DNA of 64,000 nucleotides, taken from positions 606,391-670,390 of the forward strand of contig NZ_QRZF01000001.1 of the NCBI RefSeq assembly GCF_003464595.1, read 5' to 3'. Below the pieces are notes generated by a model. It made no database searches. It saw nothing but the letters and a program-made list of their open reading frames with translations, and had not been told where the DNA came from. Shown one piece after another: positions 25,140 to 64,000 of this stretch. The translations under genes and the position numbers were made by a program. Positions within the stretch are counted from its first letter, which is position 1, and the number at the start of each line of letters is the position of its first letter. Source of the DNA: Bacteroides intestinalis. Its GTDB lineage: Bacteria > Bacteroidota > Bacteroidia > Bacteroidales > Bacteroidaceae.

Positions 25140-25170
25140 TCTATCATTGACAATCAAATTCACAACGATT

Positions 25171-26460
25171 ATGGAAACGAATAATAAAGAGATAAAACGC
25201 CGCAGCACGTTCTCCCTGCTGTTCTACATCAACCGCACGAAAGTCCGCAAGGACGGAACATGTAAATTGTTATGCAAGGTAAGCATCGACGCCAAGTCGG
25301 CCCCGATCAATATCAACGCGTTTGTCGATCCATCGCTTTGGAATCCGGAAACCAAAAGGGCGAACGGACGAAGCGAGAACGCCCGAACGGTAAACCTGGC
25401 AATAGAGAAACTGACCGAAAAAATCACCGGACATTACCGTCATATTCGTAAAAGCCTCGGTTTCGTGACGGCCGAGCTGGTCAAAAACGCCGTGGAAGGA
25501 ATCGGGCAGAAACCGTTCACCCTCCTTGCCTTGTTCCGCGAGCATAACGAGGAGTTCCGCAAGCGTGTCGGCGTGGATCGCAAGGAAGAAACTTATGAAA
25601 GTTACGAGAACTCCTATAATATTTTAGCCTCCTTCGTGAAAAAAAGGAAGGAAAAGGAGGATGTAGCGTTGCGGAGCCTTGACCGGGAGTTCTACGATGA
25701 TTTTGAAATATTCCTGCGTACAGATCGTGAAATGAAACCCAAGACAGTACACGAGCATCTTTACCGGTTGAAAAAAATGACCAAGCGGGCTGTCAGTCAG
25801 GGTACACTCCGGCGCGACCCTTACGGGAAGCTGCACCCGGAACTGCCCCGGCGCAAGAGCCGCCATTTGAAACTCGAAGACCTCAAAAAGCTGATGGAAA
25901 CTCCCGTCGATAAACCCAACCTCCAGCGGGTGCGGGACTGGTTTCTCTTCGCTACCTTCACGGGGTTGTCCTACGCCGACCTGAAACGCTTGTCCGAAAA
26001 AGACATCACGCAGTCGGACGACGGAACGTACTGGATACACATCCGGCGCCAGAAGACCGAAACGCCCTCGGCCATCCGCCTGCTGAACGTGCCGTTGCAG
26101 ATCATCGAGAAATACCGCCACGAGCGTAAAAGCGACAGGATTTTCAACCTCTATTGCCGGGGGTATCTCATCAAGCTCACCAGAGAACTGGGACGGACAT
26201 ACGGCTTCGACATGACCTTTCACAAGGCGAGGCACAATTTCGGGACACATATCACGCTCTCGTTGGGTGTGCCTATCGAAACTGTCAGCCGCATGATGGG
26301 ACACAAGAGCATTTCCACCACGCAGATTTACGCCAAAGTGACCGACCGCAAGGTGGACGAGGACATGAAACGTCTGAAAGAACAGACCAAAGGCCGGAAA
26401 ATAAATCTCTACGAGGAGGACGAACCGGAAACGGCAGATATTATAACGGTAAACGGTTGA
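25171..26460 (+). CDS. Second tyrosine recombinase, tandem to the integrase
   Basis: 429 residues from the ATG at 25171. Same domain order as its neighbour: arm-binding start STFSLLFYINRTKVRKDGTC, core-binding about 110-210, catalytic domain to residue 405. FHKARHNFGTHITL gives H-x-x-R, MGHKSISTTQIYAKVTD gives His and the tyrosine. Arg-I is again replaced (FTGLSYADL). The two proteins are clear paralogues, most alike around the tyrosine, and diverged at the N-terminus, so they may bind different arm sites. A short acidic tail (EEDEPETADI) follows the catalytic domain. Confidence 0.9.
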   Translation: METNNKEIKRRSTFSLLFYINRTKVRKDGTCKLLCKVSIDAKSAPININAFVDPSLWNPETKRANGRSENARTVNLAIEKLTEKITGHYRHIRKSLGFVTAELVKNAVEGIGQKPFTLLALFREHNEEFRKRVGVDRKEETYESYENSYNILASFVKKRKEKEDVALRSLDREFYDDFEIFLRTDREMKPKTVHEHLYRLKKMTKRAVSQGTLRRDPYGKLHPELPRRKSRHLKLEDLKKLMETPVDKPNLQRVRDWFLFATFTGLSYADLKRLSEKDITQSDDGTYWIHIRRQKTETPSAIRLLNVPLQIIEKYRHERKSDRIFNLYCRGYLIKLTRELGRTYGFDMTFHKARHNFGTHITLSLGVPIETVSRMMGHKSISTTQIYAKVTDRKVDEDMKRLKEQTKGRKINLYEEDEPETADIITVNG

Positions 26461-48147: not shown

Positions 48148-50635
48148 GTAGGCTAAGAACCCGGTGCCTTGCCGTATTTCTACGGTAGGTTTCCAAGAAC
48201 TCGCCTCCGAACCGTGCTTGCACCTCTCGGCGCACACGGCTCTCCACTAACATATTCAGTCTATTATCCCGTGATGTATCTTGTTGTGACAGGGAATACA
48301 TACAGCTAACGTCTTTCTCTGACGTCCAATCATTTGTATTTTCCATGGCTCTTTGCCTTTTAAGTCTTTGAGTCTTTTGACGTGGTGTATTTCAATGTTT
48401 TCCGTTGCGCCACACAATTCACACTTACCCGCTTTTAACCTTTGTATAAGGCTTGATACAGTGCTATTGAAAATCGTGTTGGCTACATAATCACAACTCG
48501 CGTCCATCGCGGTTGTTTTACGCTTAAAGCTCCCGTTGAAGAATACCCGCATCTTCTTTCCTCCTTTCTTGTCCTCATAGAAAACCGCAAAATCTTTGTG
48601 ATGTCGATACTTTGCGATAATCTTTCGGGCTGTCGTACTGTACTTTCGTGCAAAAGTCTTATACAGACTGTATTGCATGATGTACTTGAAAGAATTCAGG
48701 TGTGAACTGTTATTTGCGATAGAAAAATAGTTTGCAAAACCTCGGATTTCTCTGTTATAGGCATCCAGTATTTCGAGGTCGTCCAGATGTAGCAACTTTG
48801 TCCGGCTTGTGGGTTTCCATTTCGCTTTACCCTCGAATTGATGAATTTCCATCGCCTCGTAGTAGAGAAGTTTATCCCGCATTGTGGACATTGGCACTTC
48901 CAACACTACCTTTTTGCCGTAAGCCTTAATAAGTACTCCCGATTTCTCGCCTCTTAACGTCTTATCCGTGAATGGTCGGACATAGATTTCATAGCCGAGG
49001 AATTTTGCCTTTCTATTGCCGTGCGTGATTAAGGTCTTTTCTTCGGAGAGCGTCAATTTCAGTTTCTCGCCGAGGAAATTCTTAATATCCTCTTTGATGG
49101 CCTCACAGTCCGATTTACTGCCAATCACTCCGATAATAAAATCATCGGCATACCTCACATACTTAATCCGTCTATATCCCTCGTCCATTTCATCGACAGA
49201 GGGTAAGTGCATCCTGTTTTTCTGATGTTGCTTAATCGCGTCAATCAGTTCCTTCCGAGTATCTTTATCCTCGGTTTGCTTCAGTTTTGTGCCGAGCCAC
49301 CAAATTTTCCTGGAATACCGTTTGTACTCAAGGTTCATTGCCCGTCTGTCGCCTCTATCGAATTGACAGGCATACTCTTTCATGTACTTATCCAGCTTGT
49401 CGAGATAGATATTAGCCAGTATCGGGCTAATGATGCCACCTTGCGGTGTTCCGCTGTATGTTCTATGAAATGTCCAATCTTCGATGTAGCCAGCTTTCAA
49501 AAATTTCCACATTAGCCGGATAAAGCGGTCGTCTGCGATACGTTCTTTCAAGATTCCGATAAGTACATCATGGTTGATGTTATCGAAGAATCCTTCAATG
49601 TCGCCCTCGATAAACCACTTGGCCGCAGTAAAATTCTTCTGCACCTGTATCAGTGCGGTGTGGCAGCTGCGTTTGGGTCGGAAGCCGTGCGAGGTGTTCT
49701 CAAAACTACCTTCATAAATTGCTTCCAACAGCATTCGCAATACCTCCTGCACTAATTTGTCGTCGATAGACGGTATGCCGAGAGGTCGCATGTTCCCGTT
49801 TTTCTTCGGGATGTACGTCCTTCTTGCCGGTTTTGGTTGGTACGACTCATCTTTGAGCGCATCAATCAAATTTTCAATCCGTTTCAGGCTCATTCCGTCG
49901 ATAGTTTTACCGTCGGAACCTTCCGTCATATTTCCCTGCCTACCTTGTATATTATGGTAGGCGAGGAGAAACATCTCCGAATTGAATAGAACCCTGTAGA
50001 GCCGTTCAAACTTGTAGCTCGAAACTTTGCTGTGCTCTGACAGACTGTTTAATACTCTCTCTGGATTTCTCATAATGTCTCACACATTATCCGTTAATTT
50101 GTATTAAAAATGTTAGCTGCCACCCTTCGCCATGTACGAGGCTTTCCCTCGCTCGGACTACTACGGTGGCTCCGTTGCCATACCGGATTTTCATAGGTCT
50201 GAAACCTAATAGCCTTTCGGCATTCCGGGTTAGGCAATCCACGTTTAATTCTTCGGCAACATAGCTTTGATAGATTGTCGGATACGACTTTCGCCCGTTT
50301 CTGCTTATCGCAGTTGTGCTGTAACCTGTTCTGCACCCAACCCTCCAAGGTCGAATCGAGTGTGTTACAGTATGGCGTCTGTAGTTACCTTCCGCCACAG
50401 TTTCGAGTTGTGCCACTTGGACTATCGTTCAATCAATCCAGACTTTATCCTCGTATCTATCTTTCATCTCCTGATTCAGTCGCATACTTGGTAACTGTAT
50501 GACTTATCAGTTTATCGGCAGGCTATACTCCCCGTCCGGTTTCCCTTTCGGATAAGCCGATCGATGATAGGCTATCGAACACTTGCCTAACGTCTTGCTA
50601 TCGACGCATTTGCCAAAGAACCATTACGTGCGCGC
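48148..50635 (-). mobile_element. Group II intron inside traF
   Basis: 2488 nt, sense orientation. The 5' end reads GCGCGCACGTAATGG, an off-consensus start (usual GTGYG), chosen because it and the 3' end CTTAGCCTAC give an in-frame 107-codon traF. Domain V is at 48209-48242, starting GAGCCGTGTGCG and ending GCACGGTTC. Domain VI follows. It encodes its own RT-HNH protein, which differs in length and sequence from the traG intron's, so the two are independent insertions. Confidence 0.87.
48256..50073 (-). CDS. ltrA: Group II intron reverse transcriptase/maturase with HNH domain
   Basis: 605 residues. RT blocks: RRTYIPKKNGNMRPLGIPSI, WFIEGDIEGFFDNINHDVLI, SGTPQGGIISPILANIYLDK and the catalytic IKYVRYADDFIIGVIG. 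An insertion of about 80 residues (KYMKEYACQFDRGDRRAMNL onward) separates blocks before YADD, typical of this intron class. The C-terminal endonuclease has CELCGATENIEIHHV and VCIPCHNKIHHG. All catalytic residues are intact. Confidence 0.92.
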   Translation of the reverse strand: MRNPERVLNSLSEHSKVSSYKFERLYRVLFNSEMFLLAYHNIQGRQGNMTEGSDGKTIDGMSLKRIENLIDALKDESYQPKPARRTYIPKKNGNMRPLGIPSIDDKLVQEVLRMLLEAIYEGSFENTSHGFRPKRSCHTALIQVQKNFTAAKWFIEGDIEGFFDNINHDVLIGILKERIADDRFIRLMWKFLKAGYIEDWTFHRTYSGTPQGGIISPILANIYLDKLDKYMKEYACQFDRGDRRAMNLEYKRYSRKIWWLGTKLKQTEDKDTRKELIDAIKQHQKNRMHLPSVDEMDEGYRRIKYVRYADDFIIGVIGSKSDCEAIKEDIKNFLGEKLKLTLSEEKTLITHGNRKAKFLGYEIYVRPFTDKTLRGEKSGVLIKAYGKKVVLEVPMSTMRDKLLYYEAMEIHQFEGKAKWKPTSRTKLLHLDDLEILDAYNREIRGFANYFSIANNSSHLNSFKYIMQYSLYKTFARKYSTTARKIIAKYRHHKDFAVFYEDKKGGKKMRVFFNGSFKRKTTAMDASCDYVANTIFNSTVSSLIQRLKAGKCELCGATENIEIHHVKRLKDLKGKEPWKIQMIGRQRKTLAVCIPCHNKIHHGIID

Positions 50636-59488: not shown

Positions 59489-60079
59489 TTATATCGAATG
59501 GTCTAACTCGATGTACCAGTTTCCCTTGATGGGCTTGTAAAGCGTGGTGTCGTTGTACGTCCTGCGGTAGATCTCGTTCAGGTCGCCATGTTCGGTGATA
59601 CGGATATTCCGACGGCTTCTCAATCCGGGATCGTAAACGAAACTCTTGGACGTTCCGGCATCCACGATGCCGTGGGAGTAGTACGGCATAACGAGGCTCA
59701 CATATACCGAATCTGCCGTTCCCCATTCCCTGCGATCAACAAGGATAAAACCGCATCCAATCTCTGATAACAGGGAGTCGAGTAGGATTCGCTCCGGCTT
59801 CAACAGTCCATATACCGGGATGTCTTGTTCATCATTCGTTTCATGGGATGTATCGCTTTGCTCCATTGAATCAAGTATAATAACCTCTTCCGGAGAAAGC
59901 GGCGGGTAGTGAAAACTACCTTCTGAACTCTCTGCCATGATTTCGTACACCTTACGGAACGCCACCTCGTGCGTGGTGAAATGGCGTATCATTTCCTCGT
60001 CCGACGGCGGCATGGGAGGCTCTCCGCAGCTTACGGCAAGCAGGATTACAAATAACAGGATTATGACTGGTGTTCTCAT
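59489..60079 (-). CDS. Putative lipoprotein, last gene of the cassette array
   Basis: 196 residues with a lipoprotein signal (VIILLFVILLAVSCGE; lipobox cysteine near residue 18). EEMIRHFTTHEVAFRKVYEI and NWYIELDHSI at the end are distinctive; the body is acidic. No family recognised. Its ATG lies 12 nt after the CATTA end of the repeat at 60091-60140. No repeat of the same type follows it, so it marks the left end of the array. Confidence 0.65.
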   Translation of the reverse strand: MRTPVIILLFVILLAVSCGEPPMPPSDEEMIRHFTTHEVAFRKVYEIMAESSEGSFHYPPLSPEEVIILDSMEQSDTSHETNDEQDIPVYGLLKPERILLDSLLSEIGCGFILVDRREWGTADSVYVSLVMPYYSHGIVDAGTSKSFVYDPGLRSRRNIRITEHGDLNEIYRRTYNDTTLYKPIKGNWYIELDHSI

Positions 60080-60090
60080 TTTCTAATGTT

Positions 60091-60140
60091 TAATGTTCTG
60101 TGGCTAACCAATCTTGTTTAGGGAGTTGAGCCATTTGTTA
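60091..60140 (-). repeat. attC-like hairpin repeat 1
   Basis: 50 nt. On the minus strand it starts TAACAAATGG and ends GAACATTA. TGGCT-C-AACT pairs with GGTTAGCCA with one bulged C. The end of the upstream gene is encoded within it. Confidence 0.75.
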
Positions 60141-61054
60141 ATAGCATCCAATCTGTTATTCTGTTTAATGGTATCTTCATTTCTACATAATTTGATTTGC
60201 CGAATAACAGAGTTCTGCATAATTGAATCGGATTTGAAAAGCAGTTCTAAAACGGCTTCATAACATTTGGAATATCTGGACAATTCATCCAATATATTTG
60301 CGTCTTTTAGAATATACAGGTTGAAATTGTACACAAATGACTTGTAACTGAAAATCTCCGACTGTAATGCTGCTGCATCAAGACAAGTATAAAACAATTC
60401 CTTATCGTGCTGATATAGCCACATATAATCAGATGGGTTCAGGTTGTAGTGCAATAAAGTTTCCGAACGGACAAATGGAAGCCCCGTATTTGAGCCTACC
60501 AGATAACGGTATGTCTCATTGACTATTGACTCAACTATTTCAATGGATTCTGATTGTTTGTCCGATTCCCGTATTTCTGTAAATGTATCGGCAATAAGAA
60601 CTTCCACATCCTGCGATTTGTAATATATACCGTTTTTTTGCCAGCGGAATCTACGGATATATTCTTCAGAAGTCGGACAACAGAACAGTAAAGTATTTAA
60701 CAATCGGTTCAGATATATTCGCTTATCTGGAATATGACAACGGTGTAACCCTATTATGGAGCCATAAGCGTATAGCTTTCCAAACTCGTTTTCCTCCGAA
60801 TTTGAATTTTTAGGCATGTAATACAACCGCACAATATTGGAAATGAAATAATATATATCAAGATATTTCAATGTATCAGCCGATTCTCCATATTTGTTAA
60901 GTAAATGCCGCTCCAGTTTCTCGCCATACCATAAGTAGCCATCGGGATTTATTTGAAACAACCGATGAAACTTAGGTCTTGATAATGAAAAGTTCTTGTT
61001 TCTACTTTTCATTCGTTCCAGTAAGGCGACAATAATTCTATTCGTTATATCCAT
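60104..61054 (-). CDS. Cassette-borne protein of unknown function
   Basis: 316 residues, soluble, helix-rich, low GC. Distinctive parts: FHRLFQINPDGYLWYGEKLE, IDKRIYLNRLLNT-like helices, and SETLLHYNLNPSDYMWLYQH. No family recognised; immunity function is suggested only by its neighbours. The last dozen residues (INKWLNSLNKIG) are encoded by the attC-like repeat, so an original C-terminus may have been fused to repeat sequence. The start is 6 nt after repeat 2. Confidence 0.6.
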   Translation of the reverse strand: MDITNRIIVALLERMKSRNKNFSLSRPKFHRLFQINPDGYLWYGEKLERHLLNKYGESADTLKYLDIYYFISNIVRLYYMPKNSNSEENEFGKLYAYGSIIGLHRCHIPDKRIYLNRLLNTLLFCCPTSEEYIRRFRWQKNGIYYKSQDVEVLIADTFTEIRESDKQSESIEIVESIVNETYRYLVGSNTGLPFVRSETLLHYNLNPSDYMWLYQHDKELFYTCLDAAALQSEIFSYKSFVYNFNLYILKDANILDELSRYSKCYEAVLELLFKSDSIMQNSVIRQIKLCRNEDTIKQNNRLDAINKWLNSLNKIG

Positions 61055-61059
61055 AGCTG

Positions 61060-61109
61060 TAATGTTTGGTGGCTAACCGACCTTTAAGGGGAGGTTGAGC
61101 CGCTTGTTA
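61060..61109 (-). repeat. attC-like hairpin repeat 2
   Basis: 50 nt, minus strand TAACAAGCGGCTCAACC then GGTTAGCCACCAAACATTA. Eight base pairs with a single bulged C at position 13. Confidence 0.8.
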
Positions 61110-61116
61110 ATCGTCT

Positions 61117-61581
61117 TTATTGGATTGAATGTATTATTAAAGATACTTCGTCTTTTTGATAAAGATAAGTTTTTATTATACAAGATGTTTTTTGTAATGA
61201 TAAAAAAACTTTAACCGACGCTTCACAATAGGGAGACAAAGAATCAAATAGGACTAATTCAGTAGAATCCCATTTTACTTCAACTTCTTCTATCGGTTCT
61301 GCCCCAGTTACTATATCATTCTCCAGAAGTTTTTCCACCGTTAGATAATCGGGAGCATACTTCCAACGAATTATTAAAATTGCTCCATCTTTATTTACTA
61401 TGCGTGTAGCCATCGGTTCATCTCCCATTACCAATAAGACATGATTGTCTATATAGATTTTCCCCAAGTAATCTGTTACGCTACATATAGCATTGTAGTT
61501 TTCTTGACCCTTCCATTGATGGGCATATTGTTGCTCAACAATGACAAATGGGCTTCCTGATGTTTCAATCCAATTATTCAT
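61117..61581 (-). CDS. Imm21-like immunity protein
   Basis: 154 residues from the ATG at 61581. NNWIETSGSPFVIVEQQYAH, then CSVTDYLGKIYIDNHVLLVM and GDEPMATRIVNKDGAILIIR, WKYAPDY: these are the ordered signature blocks of the Imm21 family of polymorphic-toxin immunity proteins. Immunity proteins of this class block a partner toxin in the cytoplasm. No toxin gene is next to it, so it is an orphan. The start follows repeat 3 by 15 nt and the stop precedes repeat 2 by 7 nt. Confidence 0.75.
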   Translation of the reverse strand: MNNWIETSGSPFVIVEQQYAHQWKGQENYNAICSVTDYLGKIYIDNHVLLVMGDEPMATRIVNKDGAILIIRWKYAPDYLTVEKLLENDIVTGAEPIEEVEVKWDSTELVLFDSLSPYCEASVKVFLSLQKTSCIIKTYLYQKDEVSLIIHSIQ

Positions 61582-61596
61582 ATTTTTCTCAGCGAT

Positions 61597-61646
61597 TAAT
61601 GTTTGGTGGCTAACCGACCTTTCAGGGGTAGTTAAGCCGCTTGTTA
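61597..61646 (-). repeat. attC-like hairpin repeat 3
   Basis: 50 nt, minus strand TAACAAGCGGCTTAACT then GGTTAGCCACCAAACATTA, nearly identical to repeat 2. One bulged T at position 13. The TAA is also the stop codon of the upstream gene. Confidence 0.8.
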
Positions 61647-62264
61647 GCAACTTCTTTTCGTTTTATAGATTATTTCAGAATATCCATTTGGAAATGATTT
61701 GGTAATACTTTCTAAAGCCCCATCGTCTTGATATTGGAATATATGAATTAAATCATTACCACTATTACCCTCAATATCATATTGTTTGACTTCAATATGT
61801 GTCAAAGCATTTTCTTTATAGATATAATTCTCTTCACGGCAACCATACCTACCACATAACTGTGACCGTTTCAGCTTTCCGCCCTCAAAAAAGTAATGGC
61901 ATACATTCATCAAATGTTTTCCATTATCGTATAAAATACTTTTCACAAGATTGTCTGTATAATACAGGAAGGTGTGATAAAACTGATTTTCAATAGAACA
62001 ACCAACCTTAACTTCTACGATTTGATTTTGGTTATTAAATCCGTAGATACAAAGATTTTTGGTGCTTTTTATTGTATCAGGACGCTTTACAGGTTTTCCT
62101 TGTTTGCAACCATTACGCTGATAGGAATATGGAGTAAGTTCATAAAACTCACCCTTATACAACTCAGTCCTGCCAACATCGTCTTCTATTTGTTGCCTTA
62201 TGGTTTCAAAGTCATTTTTCAATGCTTCAAATTCAATTCTTATAGTTTCTCCAATCATTTCCAT
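61644..62264 (-). CDS. Cassette-borne protein, probable immunity-type
   Basis: 206 residues. A helical start (RIEFEALKNDFETIRQQIED) leads into repeated beta strands (IYGFNNQNQIVEVKVGCSIE, YFFEGGKLKRSQLCGRYGCR, IHIFQYQDDGALESITKSFP), reminiscent of MORN/RHS-like strand repeats. No family recognised. The stop codon is the TAA of repeat 3; the ATG is 15 nt after repeat 4. A second ATG two codons on is equally possible. Confidence 0.6.
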   Translation of the reverse strand: MEMIGETIRIEFEALKNDFETIRQQIEDDVGRTELYKGEFYELTPYSYQRNGCKQGKPVKRPDTIKSTKNLCIYGFNNQNQIVEVKVGCSIENQFYHTFLYYTDNLVKSILYDNGKHLMNVCHYFFEGGKLKRSQLCGRYGCREENYIYKENALTHIEVKQYDIEGNSGNDLIHIFQYQDDGALESITKSFPNGYSEIIYKTKRSC

Positions 62265-62278
62265 CTTTTTGGGGTTGC

Positions 62279-62325
62279 TAATGGTTTGCAGCGTTCCGCT
62301 TATTCAGTCGGTTTGCTGTTTGTTA
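62279..62325 (-). repeat. attC-like hairpin repeat 4
   Basis: 47 nt, minus strand TAACAAACAGCAAACCG then CGGAACGCTGCAAACCATTA. Outer flanks TGCTAA/TTAGCA pair (6 bp), then CAGC/GCTG and CCG/CGG. Most diverged inside, best paired outside. Confidence 0.7.
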
Positions 62326-62337
62326 GCAGTTTATTTT

Positions 62338-62811
62338 CTAAATAGCCTTTAACTTGTTATTCATTTCTTTCCTATACAGAATTGAACTAAAGGGATAAAT
62401 ATTATTAAGTTCCGGTTTTTCTCCATATAGTTCAATTATCCCATCTATTGATTCTAATTTTTGCAAAATGGGTATTGAAATATTTATGATATTTTCAATT
62501 AACCGTGAACGCAACTGTTCATCAATAGTCGATTCTAAATCTAATATCATTTGTGTGGAATACCCTTCAATTTCCATTATTGGGAAGCGCATTCTAATAT
62601 CACATTGATATTCTTTAGGAAATAATAAATCATCGCCTTTACGTAATAAAGCCGCCAAGTTTATATAAAACATCTTTCCATACAAAGAGTGTTGGAGATT
62701 GAATACAACTATACATTCGGCAGTAGTCTTATACCACGAATTTCCTTTTCTACGAAAGCTATTCGCTTTCATTACTGGATGAACTATTGATTTGAATTGC
62801 TCTTTATCCAT
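62338..62811 (-). CDS. DUF4304-like protein, probable immunity-type
   Basis: 157 residues. FKSIVHPVMKANSFRRKGNS, WYKTTAECIVVFNLQHSLYG and KMFYINLAALLRKGDD match the DUF4304 pattern (helix, then W-Y/F-x-x-x, V-x-N-x-Q, F-x-x-N-x). The family is often found with toxin-immunity loci, but its activity is not known. Stop is 12 nt before repeat 4; the start is 20 nt after repeat 5. Confidence 0.7.
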   Translation of the reverse strand: MDKEQFKSIVHPVMKANSFRRKGNSWYKTTAECIVVFNLQHSLYGKMFYINLAALLRKGDDLLFPKEYQCDIRMRFPIMEIEGYSTQMILDLESTIDEQLRSRLIENIINISIPILQKLESIDGIIELYGEKPELNNIYPFSSILYRKEMNNKLKAI

Positions 62812-62831
62812 AATATTTAATTCTAAACTGC

Positions 62832-62879
62832 TAATGTCTGGCGGATAATCGAGTTTTTAGAAGATTAATCCGCTTGTTA
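62832..62879 (-). repeat. attC-like hairpin repeat 5
   Basis: 48 nt, minus strand TAACAAGCGGATTAATC then GATTATCCGCCAGACATTA. Ten base pairs with one bulged T at position 13. The TAA is also the stop codon of the upstream gene. Confidence 0.8.
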
Positions 62880-63941
62880 TAAACTCAATTCAATCGCTTT
62901 CCATTTCTTAGACTTCAATTTTTCTAAAGAGTGTTCGCTATATCCCTTTTTAGTAGCTTTTACAGGAATAAGCGTATAAAGAGTAACCATATCCTCTTTG
63001 TTATCATATTGATTCGCTGTATCAGAGTAGTTATAATCTACGACATAGAATCCAGCCAATTTCTCCGACCAAGAGATTGCGTTGAACCCTTTCTCTGTTT
63101 TGGATATAAAATCTCCATCAGAGAATGTTCTTCCGTTACGGACTTGGTTCGTCAATTCTTTCATTACCATATAAGGGAACTGTGTCTTCTCCATTTTAGA
63201 GTATGGATTCCAGCCAAACGGAAGCACAATAACAAACTCCACATAAGGCTGGGTATATTGGAAATTTCCTACACTGAACAATAACGAATTGTTACCTCTA
63301 TTAACAACCGCAAGCCTATTGAATACACCATTTTCCGTTTCATTGAATTTGTTAGGAATAACTCTGCCAATATTCCAGTCTATATGTTGGGATATGCCAC
63401 CACCTACTTCAGACCATACATAATCGTGGTTGATATTGGACAACGCACCCTTTTCCTTCAGAAAAAGGCTTATTTCGTTATGTCCACTACTAATAGACCA
63501 ATCAAGAGGAGAAAAAAGTAGAGTTGTAGTAAGCCTATTTATGTCCGCACCTTTCTCTATAAGATAGCGAACAATCTCAAAATGCCCTTTAGCGGCAGCT
63601 TCATTCAAAGCTGCTGTTGTAGAACTTTCATAAGCATTTATATCTGCGCCATTTTCTATCAATAATTTGACTATTTCTAAATGGTTTCCAGACGAAGCAC
63701 CCCATAAAGGAGAAAATAATCTATCTTTAATACAATTTACATCGGCTCCATATTGAATTAAAGTCTTGCAAATTTCATAAAAACCTTTCTTTGCAGCTCG
63801 GCATAAAGGTGGATGAAGCGTATATAAATTCTCATCATTCAAATCCAGATCTGAATGTTGGTCGAGTATATTCGACACTTCCTGCACGTTGTTATCGCCA
63901 ACTGCTTTTTCCAGTTTTATATAAATTTCTTTATTATTCAT
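62877..63941 (-). CDS. Ankyrin-repeat plus suppressor-of-fused-domain protein, probable immunity-type
   Basis: 354 residues. The N-terminal half has four to five ankyrin repeats (HPPLCRAAKKGFYEICKTLI, SPLWGASSGNHLEIVKLLIE, TAALNEAAAKGHFEIVRYLI). The C-terminal half is a SUFU-type domain: FVIVLPFGWNPYSKMEKTQF, VRNGRTFSDGDFISKTEKGF and YTLIPVKATKKGYSEHSLEK. Both families are known as immunity proteins in bacterial toxin systems. The stop is the TAA of repeat 5. The ATG is 12 nt after repeat 6. Confidence 0.78.
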   Translation of the reverse strand: MNNKEIYIKLEKAVGDNNVQEVSNILDQHSDLDLNDENLYTLHPPLCRAAKKGFYEICKTLIQYGADVNCIKDRLFSPLWGASSGNHLEIVKLLIENGADINAYESSTTAALNEAAAKGHFEIVRYLIEKGADINRLTTTLLFSPLDWSISSGHNEISLFLKEKGALSNINHDYVWSEVGGGISQHIDWNIGRVIPNKFNETENGVFNRLAVVNRGNNSLLFSVGNFQYTQPYVEFVIVLPFGWNPYSKMEKTQFPYMVMKELTNQVRNGRTFSDGDFISKTEKGFNAISWSEKLAGFYVVDYNYSDTANQYDNKEDMVTLYTLIPVKATKKGYSEHSLEKLKSKKWKAIELSL

Positions 63942-63953
63942 CTATTGAGTTTA

Positions 63954-64000
63954 TAATGGGTTGTAAATAGCAACTGTTAGGGTTGCTTATTTATTTGTTA
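63954..64000 (-). repeat. attC-like hairpin repeat 6
   Basis: 47 nt at the window edge, minus strand TAACAAATAAATAAGCAAC then GTTGCTATTTACAACCCATTA. AAATA-A-GCAAC pairs with GTTGC-TATTT, one bulged A. It implies another gene further right. Confidence 0.7.

What the first reader, a model, noticed from the sequence alone, without database searches (positions are those of the whole stretch)
60091..64000. Integron-like attC hairpins between immunity genes on a Bacteroidales ICE
Six intergenic repeats of 47-50 nt, read on the coding strand, start TAACAA and end CATTA and fold into imperfect hairpins. In five the 5' arm has exactly one extra base (position 13 or 14), the asymmetry that marks the L'' box of integron attC sites. 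The stems differ in sequence but compensate (GGCTCAACC/GGTTAGCC, GCGGATTAATC/GATTATCCGC, AAATAAGCAAC/GTTGCTATTT), so structure is conserved over sequence. The outer R' side ends in ATTA rather than the GTTR of known attC, so these are not standard IntI sites. This resembles the rAID arrays of gut Bacteroidales and suggests a folded-site cassette-capture system.
Basis: partly seen in the sequence, partly recalled or inferred. Interest (0 to 1): 0.9.

Follow-up and report, generated by a model that had tools for sequence, protein, structure and literature searches.

The report
Integron-like cassette array of immunity genes
On a mobile element of a gut bacterium, genes that may protect against rival bacteria sit in single-gene cassettes, each with a short foldable DNA site; comparison with relatives indicates that the cassettes move one at a time, much as in integrons, although the recombinase seen in those relatives lacks the part thought essential for handling folded sites.

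Summary
In detail: six 47-50 nt sites (60091-64000), each ending a one-gene cassette. Related arrays gave 172 sites and 132 cassettes. Four results point to site-specific cassette exchange. (1) Cassette ends are complementary over 6 bp beyond the site: 94 of 115 have 4 bp or more, against 4 in shuffles, with the same profile as 16 cassettes of true integrons; flanks as they stand in the array, 3 of 171. (2) Near-identical cassettes sit between unrelated neighbours, with breakpoints at CATTA. (3) Two arrays differ by exactly one cassette at one place. (4) In relatives a tyrosine recombinase and an attI-like site stand at the array head. Stems covary and fold better on the non-coding strand, as in attC, which argues against RNA hairpins. 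It is not a canonical integron: the recombinase lacks the stretch that holds the IntI I2 domain (92 residues between motifs, IntI 134-135), the crossover triplet is ATT not GTT, sites are shorter. The arrays match the published description of rAID, so this is its likely mechanism rather than a new locus. Catalysis, strand choice and circles are inferred, not observed; the window ends before any such recombinase.

The parts
60091..60140 (-). site r1 (terminal site of the array), TAACAA...CATTA on the coding strand; next to the conserved element backbone (CATTA|AACATTAGAAA)
   Evidence: same site and at least 60 identical bases of backbone behind it in L001, L013 and L221
60104..61054 (-). 316-aa gene of the terminal cassette (body 60141-61059); its reading frame runs into r1; no Pfam match
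   Evidence: 919-bp cassette body 100% identical in L221, 99.5% in L013, 99.1% in L001
61060..61109 (-). site r2
61110..61596 (-). cassette body with Imm21-family gene (61117-61581); ends complementary over 4 bp
   Evidence: 100% identical 487-bp body in L221 and 97.7% in L014, each with other neighbours
61597..61646 (-). site r3
61647..62278 (-). cassette body with 206-aa gene (61644-62264); ends complementary over 5 bp; no Pfam match
   Evidence: 98.9% identical in L014, 90.4% in Bacteroides fragilis Q1F2 (L079)
62279..62325 (-). site r4 (class with a symmetric internal loop instead of the extra base)
62326..62831 (-). cassette body with DUF4304 gene (62338-62811); ends complementary over 8 bp
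62832..62879 (-). site r5
62880..63953 (-). cassette body with ankyrin-repeat gene (62877-63941); ends complementary over 10 bp
63954..64000 (-). site r6, at the edge of the window; the array and, by analogy, the recombinase continue beyond it
   Evidence: recombinase at the array head in L014, L221, L222, L226 and others
59489..60079 (-). DUF4948 gene of the element backbone, first gene after the array in the window, L001, L013 and L014
54239..57847 (+). mobilisation genes of the carrier element: MobC-like, MobA/VirD2-type relaxase, TraG/TraD-type coupling protein
   Evidence: Pfam

Best explanation
This is the tail of an integron-like cassette array (rAID type) on a conjugative element. Each cassette is one gene, often of an immunity-type family, plus its own 3' site. 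A tyrosine recombinase encoded at the array head is proposed to cut at CA^TTA: it excises single cassettes as circles by site x site exchange and reinserts circles at the attI-like site after its own gene or at other sites. In the circle the cassette ends come together and extend the outer arm from 4 to about 10 bp, giving a hairpin on the non-coding strand, like an attC bottom strand. Conjugation, which delivers single strands, would favour folding. Shown here by sequence comparison: cassette units, breakpoints, end complementarity, covarying stems, strand bias of stability, attI-like conservation in clade A, linkage to the recombinase. Inferred: catalysis, the exact cut, the folded single strand as substrate, circular intermediates, protection against rivals' toxins.
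For: End complementarity in 94 of 115 unique cassettes at 4 bp or more, shuffles mean 4.0 and largest 12 of 2000; 3 of 171 in array form; it stops after position 6, the same profile as in 16 true integron cassettes. Shared cassettes: 23 pairs with body 90% or more and an unrelated upstream neighbour, own-site identity 0.96, upstream-site 0.67. Breakpoints in 25 pairs: right side 0-2 nt past the site in 19, the other 6 being the terminal cassette on common backbone. Single Imm21 cassette indel L014 versus L221: 1284 of 1297 identical once it is left out, junction resolved to AACATTA. Covariation. Bottom strand folds better: 110 lower, 29 higher of 149 sites; 12 and 1 of 14 clusters. attI-like stretch largely conserved in 6 of 6 clade A loci, diverging right after [A/G]TT. 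Sites (E 0.01) and recombinase (E 1e-90) co-occur: 10 both, 4 and 2 alone, 235 neither of 251 genomes, p 2.8e-13. Longest frame on the coding strand in 127 of 132 cassettes.
Against: No reaction, circle or read-level junction was seen. The recombinase lacks the insertion holding I2, which is said to be necessary for cassette capture by IntI. The window itself holds no such recombinase, only a weak match to another integrase. The excess of bottom-strand G.T over A.C (80 to 21) falls to 14 to 8, not significant, when sites are merged at 85% identity. Two of the five covariation measures are less decisive: pairs changed on both sides 10 against 7.8 (25 of 500 shuffles as high), further pair types 23 against 20.3 (42 of 500), and these shuffles do not keep relatedness. 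The terminal cassette of the window shows no end complementarity, and 21 of 115 unique cassettes fall below 4 bp. In clade B the end of the attI-like stretch was not resolved.
Confidence: 0.82

Rival explanations
1. Double-stranded site-specific recombination: the recombinase joins ordinary double-stranded sites (Xer/Cre-like) and the palindromes are just paired binding sites; no folded single strand is involved.
For: The recombinase lacks the IntI insertion, as Xer proteins do. End complementarity could in part reflect inverted arm sequences.
Against: Bottom-strand stability and pairing bias; covarying inner stems that keep pairing but not sequence; the same arm and circle geometry as in integrons, which act on folded bottom strands according to PMC8946536 (passages).
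Confidence: 0.13
2. Canonical integron with an IntI integrase and standard attC sites.
For: Cassette layout, attI-like site, R/L-type arms, end complementarity equal to that of true integrons; the recombinase falls on the IntI side of the tree.
Against: No insertion of IntI size; integron-integrase model 203 bits against a cut-off of 265, a true IntI scoring 460; CATTA not CGTTA in 163 of 172 sites; 44-52 nt against the 57-142 nt given for attC in PMC2727003 (passage); model R1 finds no site in the integron stretches L156-L159.
Confidence: 0.03
3. The hairpins are transcription terminators or RNA elements, and the shuffling is homologous recombination between repeats.
For: Sites follow stop codons closely (median 8 nt from stop to site, cassettes with a frame of 60 aa or more) and sit between co-oriented genes.
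Against: The coding-sense strand is the one that pairs worse (78.9% against 93.0% of cells); breakpoints fall at one edge of the site, not throughout it; repeat recombination gives no reason for complementary cassette ends.
Confidence: 0.02

Closest known systems
rAID (recombinase-associated acquired interbacterial defence) clusters of gut Bacteroidales
   Same: Tyrosine recombinase at the head, array of short co-oriented low-GC genes, conserved intergenic motifs, orphan immunity proteins including dual-SUKH ones, as described in PMC12247911 (passages); dual-SUKH protein in L221 16042-17037.
   Different: The passages that I could read name the intergenic motifs but not folding, strand, crossover point, circular cassettes or attI, and the paper does not use the word integron; Ross 2019 (Nature) was not held. 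The published reference recombinase (BF9343_RS08045) was not compared.
Integrons (IntI/attI/attC)
   Same: One-gene cassettes with a 3' imperfect palindrome, attI-like site next to the recombinase gene, bottom strand folding better, about 6 extra base pairs joined in the circle, common polarity of the cassettes.
   Different: No insertion holding I2, ATT crossover triplet, shorter sites, extra base not conserved in identity (A 16, G 16, T 13, C 12; absent in 17 of 74), recombinase co-directional with the array.
CTX phage / IMEX integration by XerC/XerD
   Same: I2-less tyrosine recombinase of the Xer/IntI branch; folded single-strand substrate known for CTX phage (PMC4792948 and PMC7790495 passages).
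   Different: Here the recombinase is encoded with the array and each cassette carries its own site; the proteins group apart from XerC and XerD.

Membership tests
Integron | IntI integrase with the I2 domain | tested here: not met
   92 residues between the patch-I arginine motif and the HxxRH motif in the 14 recombinases of the two array clades (13 of them with sites downstream in the stretch fetched) and in 114 of 120 near homologues (6 not measurable); Xer 96-99 (one other Xer-like 92); IntI 134-135. That the extra stretch holds I2 is inferred from its place. I2 necessary and found in no other protein according to PMC7790495 (passage).
Integron | Score over the integron-integrase family cut-off (TIGR02249, 265 bits) | tested here: not met
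   203 bits for L014, 191-207 for five more; control IntI (L239) 460 bits.
Integron | Crossover triplet GTT (top) / AAC (bottom) in attC | tested here: not met
   CATTA in 163, CGTTA in 2 of 172 sites.
Integron | attC length 57-142 nt | tested here: not met
   44-52 nt, median 48, in 172 sites; range for attC from PMC2727003 passage. The model was built on sites of this length.
Integron | Imperfect palindrome with R and L arms, central spacer, variable apical part | tested here: met
   14-pair structure, 93.0% of 1018 cells paired, covariation score above all 500 shuffles; spacer and loop lengths.
Integron | Extrahelical bases conserved in attC (G in L'', T further on) | tested here: not met
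   Extra base of any identity, absent in 17 of 74 sites; conservation in attC from PMC2727003 passage.
Integron | Bottom-strand preference | tested here: inconclusive
   Stability bias clear, G.T bias not significant after clustering at 85%; activity not testable here.
Integron | Cassette ends completing the R arm in the circle | tested here: met
   Same 6-position profile as in 16 true integron cassettes.
Integron | attI site beside the integrase gene | tested here: met
   Largely conserved stretch ending in [A/G]TT directly after the recombinase gene in 6 of 6 clade A loci and in L236 without recombinase; end not resolved for clade B. Met by sequence; activity not tested.
Integron | Recombination demonstrated; SOS control | not testable with these tools
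   No reads or experiments; SOS boxes were not looked for.
rAID | Tyrosine recombinase upstream of the array, homologous to BF9343_RS08045 | tested here: inconclusive
   Recombinase upstream in relatives; the reference protein was not at hand, and the window ends before that place.
rAID | Two or more co-directional genes below 41% GC | tested here: met
   Window array 60141-64000 34.6% GC as a whole, mean of 132 cassette bodies 32.7%; five co-oriented genes in the window.
rAID | Predicted orphan immunity genes | tested here: met
   Imm21 in 1 of 5 window cassettes; of 20 further cassette proteins searched (17 of L221, 3 of L226) 9 match SUKH, Imm19, Imm22, Imm44 or Imm51 over the cut-off; protection not tested.
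rAID | Published conserved intergenic motif | not tested
   The motif's letters were not in the passages seen; the original paper was not held.

The most novel reading that the evidence does not exclude
A cassette system with folded, attC-like sites that works without the I2 domain: a second natural solution, or a surviving relative of the ancestor, for recombining folded single-stranded sites. If so, I2 is not required for folded-site cassette capture, and the order of events (foldable sites before I2) becomes testable.
Probability: 0.55. Interest if true: 0.92.

Novelty: new variant of a known kind. Interest (0 to 1): 0.8.

Why it matters
It offers a mechanism for rAID: a 2025 preprint calls the way a cluster gains a second copy of a gene not yet clear and the mechanism of rAID biogenesis an area of active research (PMC12247911 passage). 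It also bears on an open question in integron evolution: PMC4792948 calls the origin of I2 and attC a chicken-egg paradox (passage). An I2-less recombinase beside sites that behave like attC in sequence comparisons is a natural test case. And it would mean that gut bacteria exchange such genes one at a time across genera (near-identical cassettes in Phocaeicola massiliensis L001 and Mediterranea sp. L039), on conjugative elements.

Tried and rejected
Rejected: RNA hairpin or terminator (coding strand pairs worse); homologous recombination between repeats (breakpoints at one edge); canonical IntI integron. Led nowhere: phage records (no match); viral-contig scans for the window's right end (0 matches) and for its ankyrin gene (no relative); a viral-contig scan with the recombinase gave one close locus, the G002 record itself, and four at 31-40% identity. 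Model R1 found no site at 15 loci (L161-L175) of more distant recombinases; a generic detector of foldable sites run on 14 of them (four letter-shuffles each) showed no clear excess in 13; the exception is L172, 3 and 6 on the two strands against 1.75, not followed up. Literature: no paper in the library holds both 'acquired interbacterial' and 'integron', none holds rAID, Bacteroides, immunity and attC as whole words; some searches were seen as listings only. [quoted passage not shown] Ross 2019 is not held; that its abstract speaks of a structure suggestive of active gene acquisition is recalled.

The first site set was picked by a pattern fixing TAACAA and C[AG]TTA, so conservation of these ends is built in; 5 of 79 distinct pattern matches were dropped by eye before the alignment of 74. 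Cassette-end complementarity was used in no selection. For one search the 186 model matches (30 sources of my choice, E up to 0.3) were cut to 172: the 14 matches in L056 were dropped because L056 lies in the same contig as L221; three partial matches (L221, L230, L235) were widened by 1-2 bases at each end. Neighbouring sites 1800 bases or more apart were not counted as one cassette. Several arrays come from one genome and sites are related, so counts are not independent events. The tree is midpoint-rooted and holds only two IntI rows; sisterhood to IntI is provisional.
Full report
What is there. The right end of the window carries five co-oriented genes on the minus strand, each followed by a short imperfect palindrome, with a sixth palindrome at the window edge. 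The carrier is a conjugative element: a MobC-like protein, a relaxase and a TraG/TraD-type coupling protein lie just to the left, and the gene next to the array (59489-60079, DUF4948) is also the first gene after the array in L001, L013 and L014. The cassette genes are Imm21, DUF4304, an ankyrin-repeat protein and two without a Pfam match.

The sites. A covariance model built from 74 distinct sites finds 172 sites in 28 stretches after removal of duplicates. The structure has an outer 4-bp arm (TAAC with ATTA), a short asymmetric spacer, an inner stem of 10 pairs with one extra base in 57 of 74 sites, and an apical loop of 9-16 nt. Pairing is kept while letters change: 143 cells changed on both sides against 44.6 in shuffles, covariation score 0.412 against 0.175, 0 of 500 shuffles reaching either. 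Two other measures are weaker: pairs with a change on both sides 10 against 7.8 (25 of 500), further pair types 23 against 20.3 (42 of 500). Sliding the partner by 1-3 columns lowers pairing from 93.0% to 26-61%.

The strand. Read on the non-coding strand 93.0% of 1018 cells pair, on the coding strand 78.9% of 1035 (two alignments). DNA folding energies are lower on the non-coding strand in 110 and higher in 29 of 149 distinct sites; after clustering, 12 and 1 of 14 clusters, p 0.0024. A count of G.T against A.C pairs gives 80 to 21 raw, 63 to 20 in 57 clusters and 14 to 8, not significant, in 19 clusters. A transcript of these genes would carry the worse-pairing strand, which speaks against an RNA function.

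The cassette is the moving unit. The bases after CATTA of the upstream site are complementary to the bases before TAACAA of the cassette's own site. Of 115 unique end pairs, 94 have 4 or more consecutive pairs; shuffles give 4.0 on average, at most 12 in 2000. The flanks of a site as it stands in the array show this in 3 of 171. Complementarity per position is 0.91, 0.87, 0.90, 0.90, 0.88, 0.68, then chance. In 16 cassettes of true integrons from Shewanella and Vibrio it is 1.0, 0.94, 0.81, 0.94, 0.62, 0.75, then near chance. In the window four of five cassettes show it, with runs of 10, 8, 5 and 4; the terminal cassette does not. The natural reading is a circular form in which the ends meet: modelled as a circle with 8 bases on each side, the non-coding strand averages -11.9 kcal/mol (120 sites), against -7.4 with the array flanks (129 sites).

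Exchange between arrays. Of 132 cassettes in 106 families, several recur in different places. In 23 pairs with bodies at least 90% identical and unrelated upstream neighbours, the own site is 0.96 identical on average and the upstream site 0.67. In 25 pairs at 97% or more, identity ends 0-2 nt past the own site in 19; the other six are the terminal cassette, which keeps the backbone behind it. On the left it ends 5-11 nt inside the upstream site in 23, and at 18 and 24 nt in two. At one place L014 and L221 differ by one Imm21 cassette between the same two neighbours; left out, the rest matches at 1284 of 1297, and the junction is resolved to the shared AACATTA. L221 carries the Imm21 cassette elsewhere in the same array. 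Window cassettes recur in L221, taken as Paraprevotella clara (100%, two of them), L014 (98.9%) and B. fragilis Q1F2 (90.4%).

The recombinase. In L014 the only tyrosine recombinase found in the 132-kb record stands directly before the array. In 251 genomes of the family, 12 have a close relative of it (E 1e-90), 14 have sites (E 0.01), 10 have both, p 2.8e-13. The two recombinase-only genomes do show weaker sites in the fetched loci (L219, L229). Of the four site-only genomes, one (L238) keeps a C-terminal remnant of the gene and three show none in the stretch fetched; L225 and L087 also hold remnants only. First sites lie 299-2617 bases after the recombinase gene, same strand, in 13 of 14 loci; L220 shows none. 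In clade A a stretch after the stop codon is largely conserved in 6 of 6 loci up to [A/G]TT and diverges from there on; L236 has it with a cassette and no recombinase beside it. This is the expected place and form of an attI site. Clade B loci also share a stretch there, but its end was not resolved.

Family. The six recombinases tested score 191-217 bits with the XerA and integron-integrase models, below both cut-offs. In a tree of 46 rows the 14 recombinases of the two array clades form one clade (100/98), in a larger group with 18 homologues of the same order and two IntI (100/96), apart from XerC and XerD. All 14 lack the extra stretch of about 40 residues of IntI; that it holds I2 is inferred from its place. 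I2 is described as necessary for capture and found in no other protein (PMC7790495, passages), and as posing a chicken-egg paradox (PMC4792948, passages). The sites also miss the GTT triplet, the attC length range and the conserved extrahelical bases. So it works like an integron in the respects listed above that sequence comparison can show, but it is not a member of the integron family as defined.

rAID. [quoted passage not shown] it calls the mechanism of rAID biogenesis an area of active research (PMC12247911, passages). These arrays meet the points tested: of 20 cassette proteins of L221 and L226 searched, 9 match immunity-type families over the cut-off, 4 match other domains (DUFs, ankyrin), 1 matches SUKH-3 below the cut-off and 6 match nothing. 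I therefore take the finding as the likely mechanism of rAID, not as a new kind of locus. [quoted passage not shown]

What is not shown. No reaction, no circle, no strand choice was observed; protection by the cassette genes was not tested; and the recombinase of this element, if present, lies outside the window.

Noticed in passing
window 48256-50073 (-): Group II intron reverse transcriptase/maturase with HNH domain, close to the transfer genes of the element.
   Followed up: no
window 25147-26460 (+): 437-aa protein with a weak C-terminal match to the array recombinases (33% over 66 aa); it looks like another tyrosine integrase (label recalled, no family search run).
   Followed up: no
L014 / G002 (IMGVR_UViG_2915845235_000002): A record held as a virus contig carries the array with recombinase next to helicase- and topoisomerase-like genes (labels by eye); it looks like a conjugative element rather than a virus.
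   Followed up: partly
L001 (OY726036.1): A 9568-bp 'circular plasmid' of Phocaeicola massiliensis consists of the end of a coupling-protein gene, backbone genes and a nine-site array; it may be an assembly fragment of such an element.
   Followed up: no
L260/L079 (Bacteroides fragilis Q1F2) and L227: Recombinase gene near the array interrupted by an in-frame stop; L225, L238 and L087 keep only a C-terminal remnant in the stretch fetched, so arrays without a working recombinase may be common.
   Followed up: partly
L137-L155: Homologues of the array recombinase from the same order at 36-50% identity, some 440-565 aa long; 15 loci searched (L161-L175) hold no R1 site; their own target sites are unknown.
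   Followed up: partly
L172 (G136:C250): Nine foldable TAAC...[AG]TTA stretches (3 and 6 by strand) against 1.75 shuffled per strand beside a distant recombinase homologue; could be a diverged relative of this system or a composition effect.
   Followed up: no
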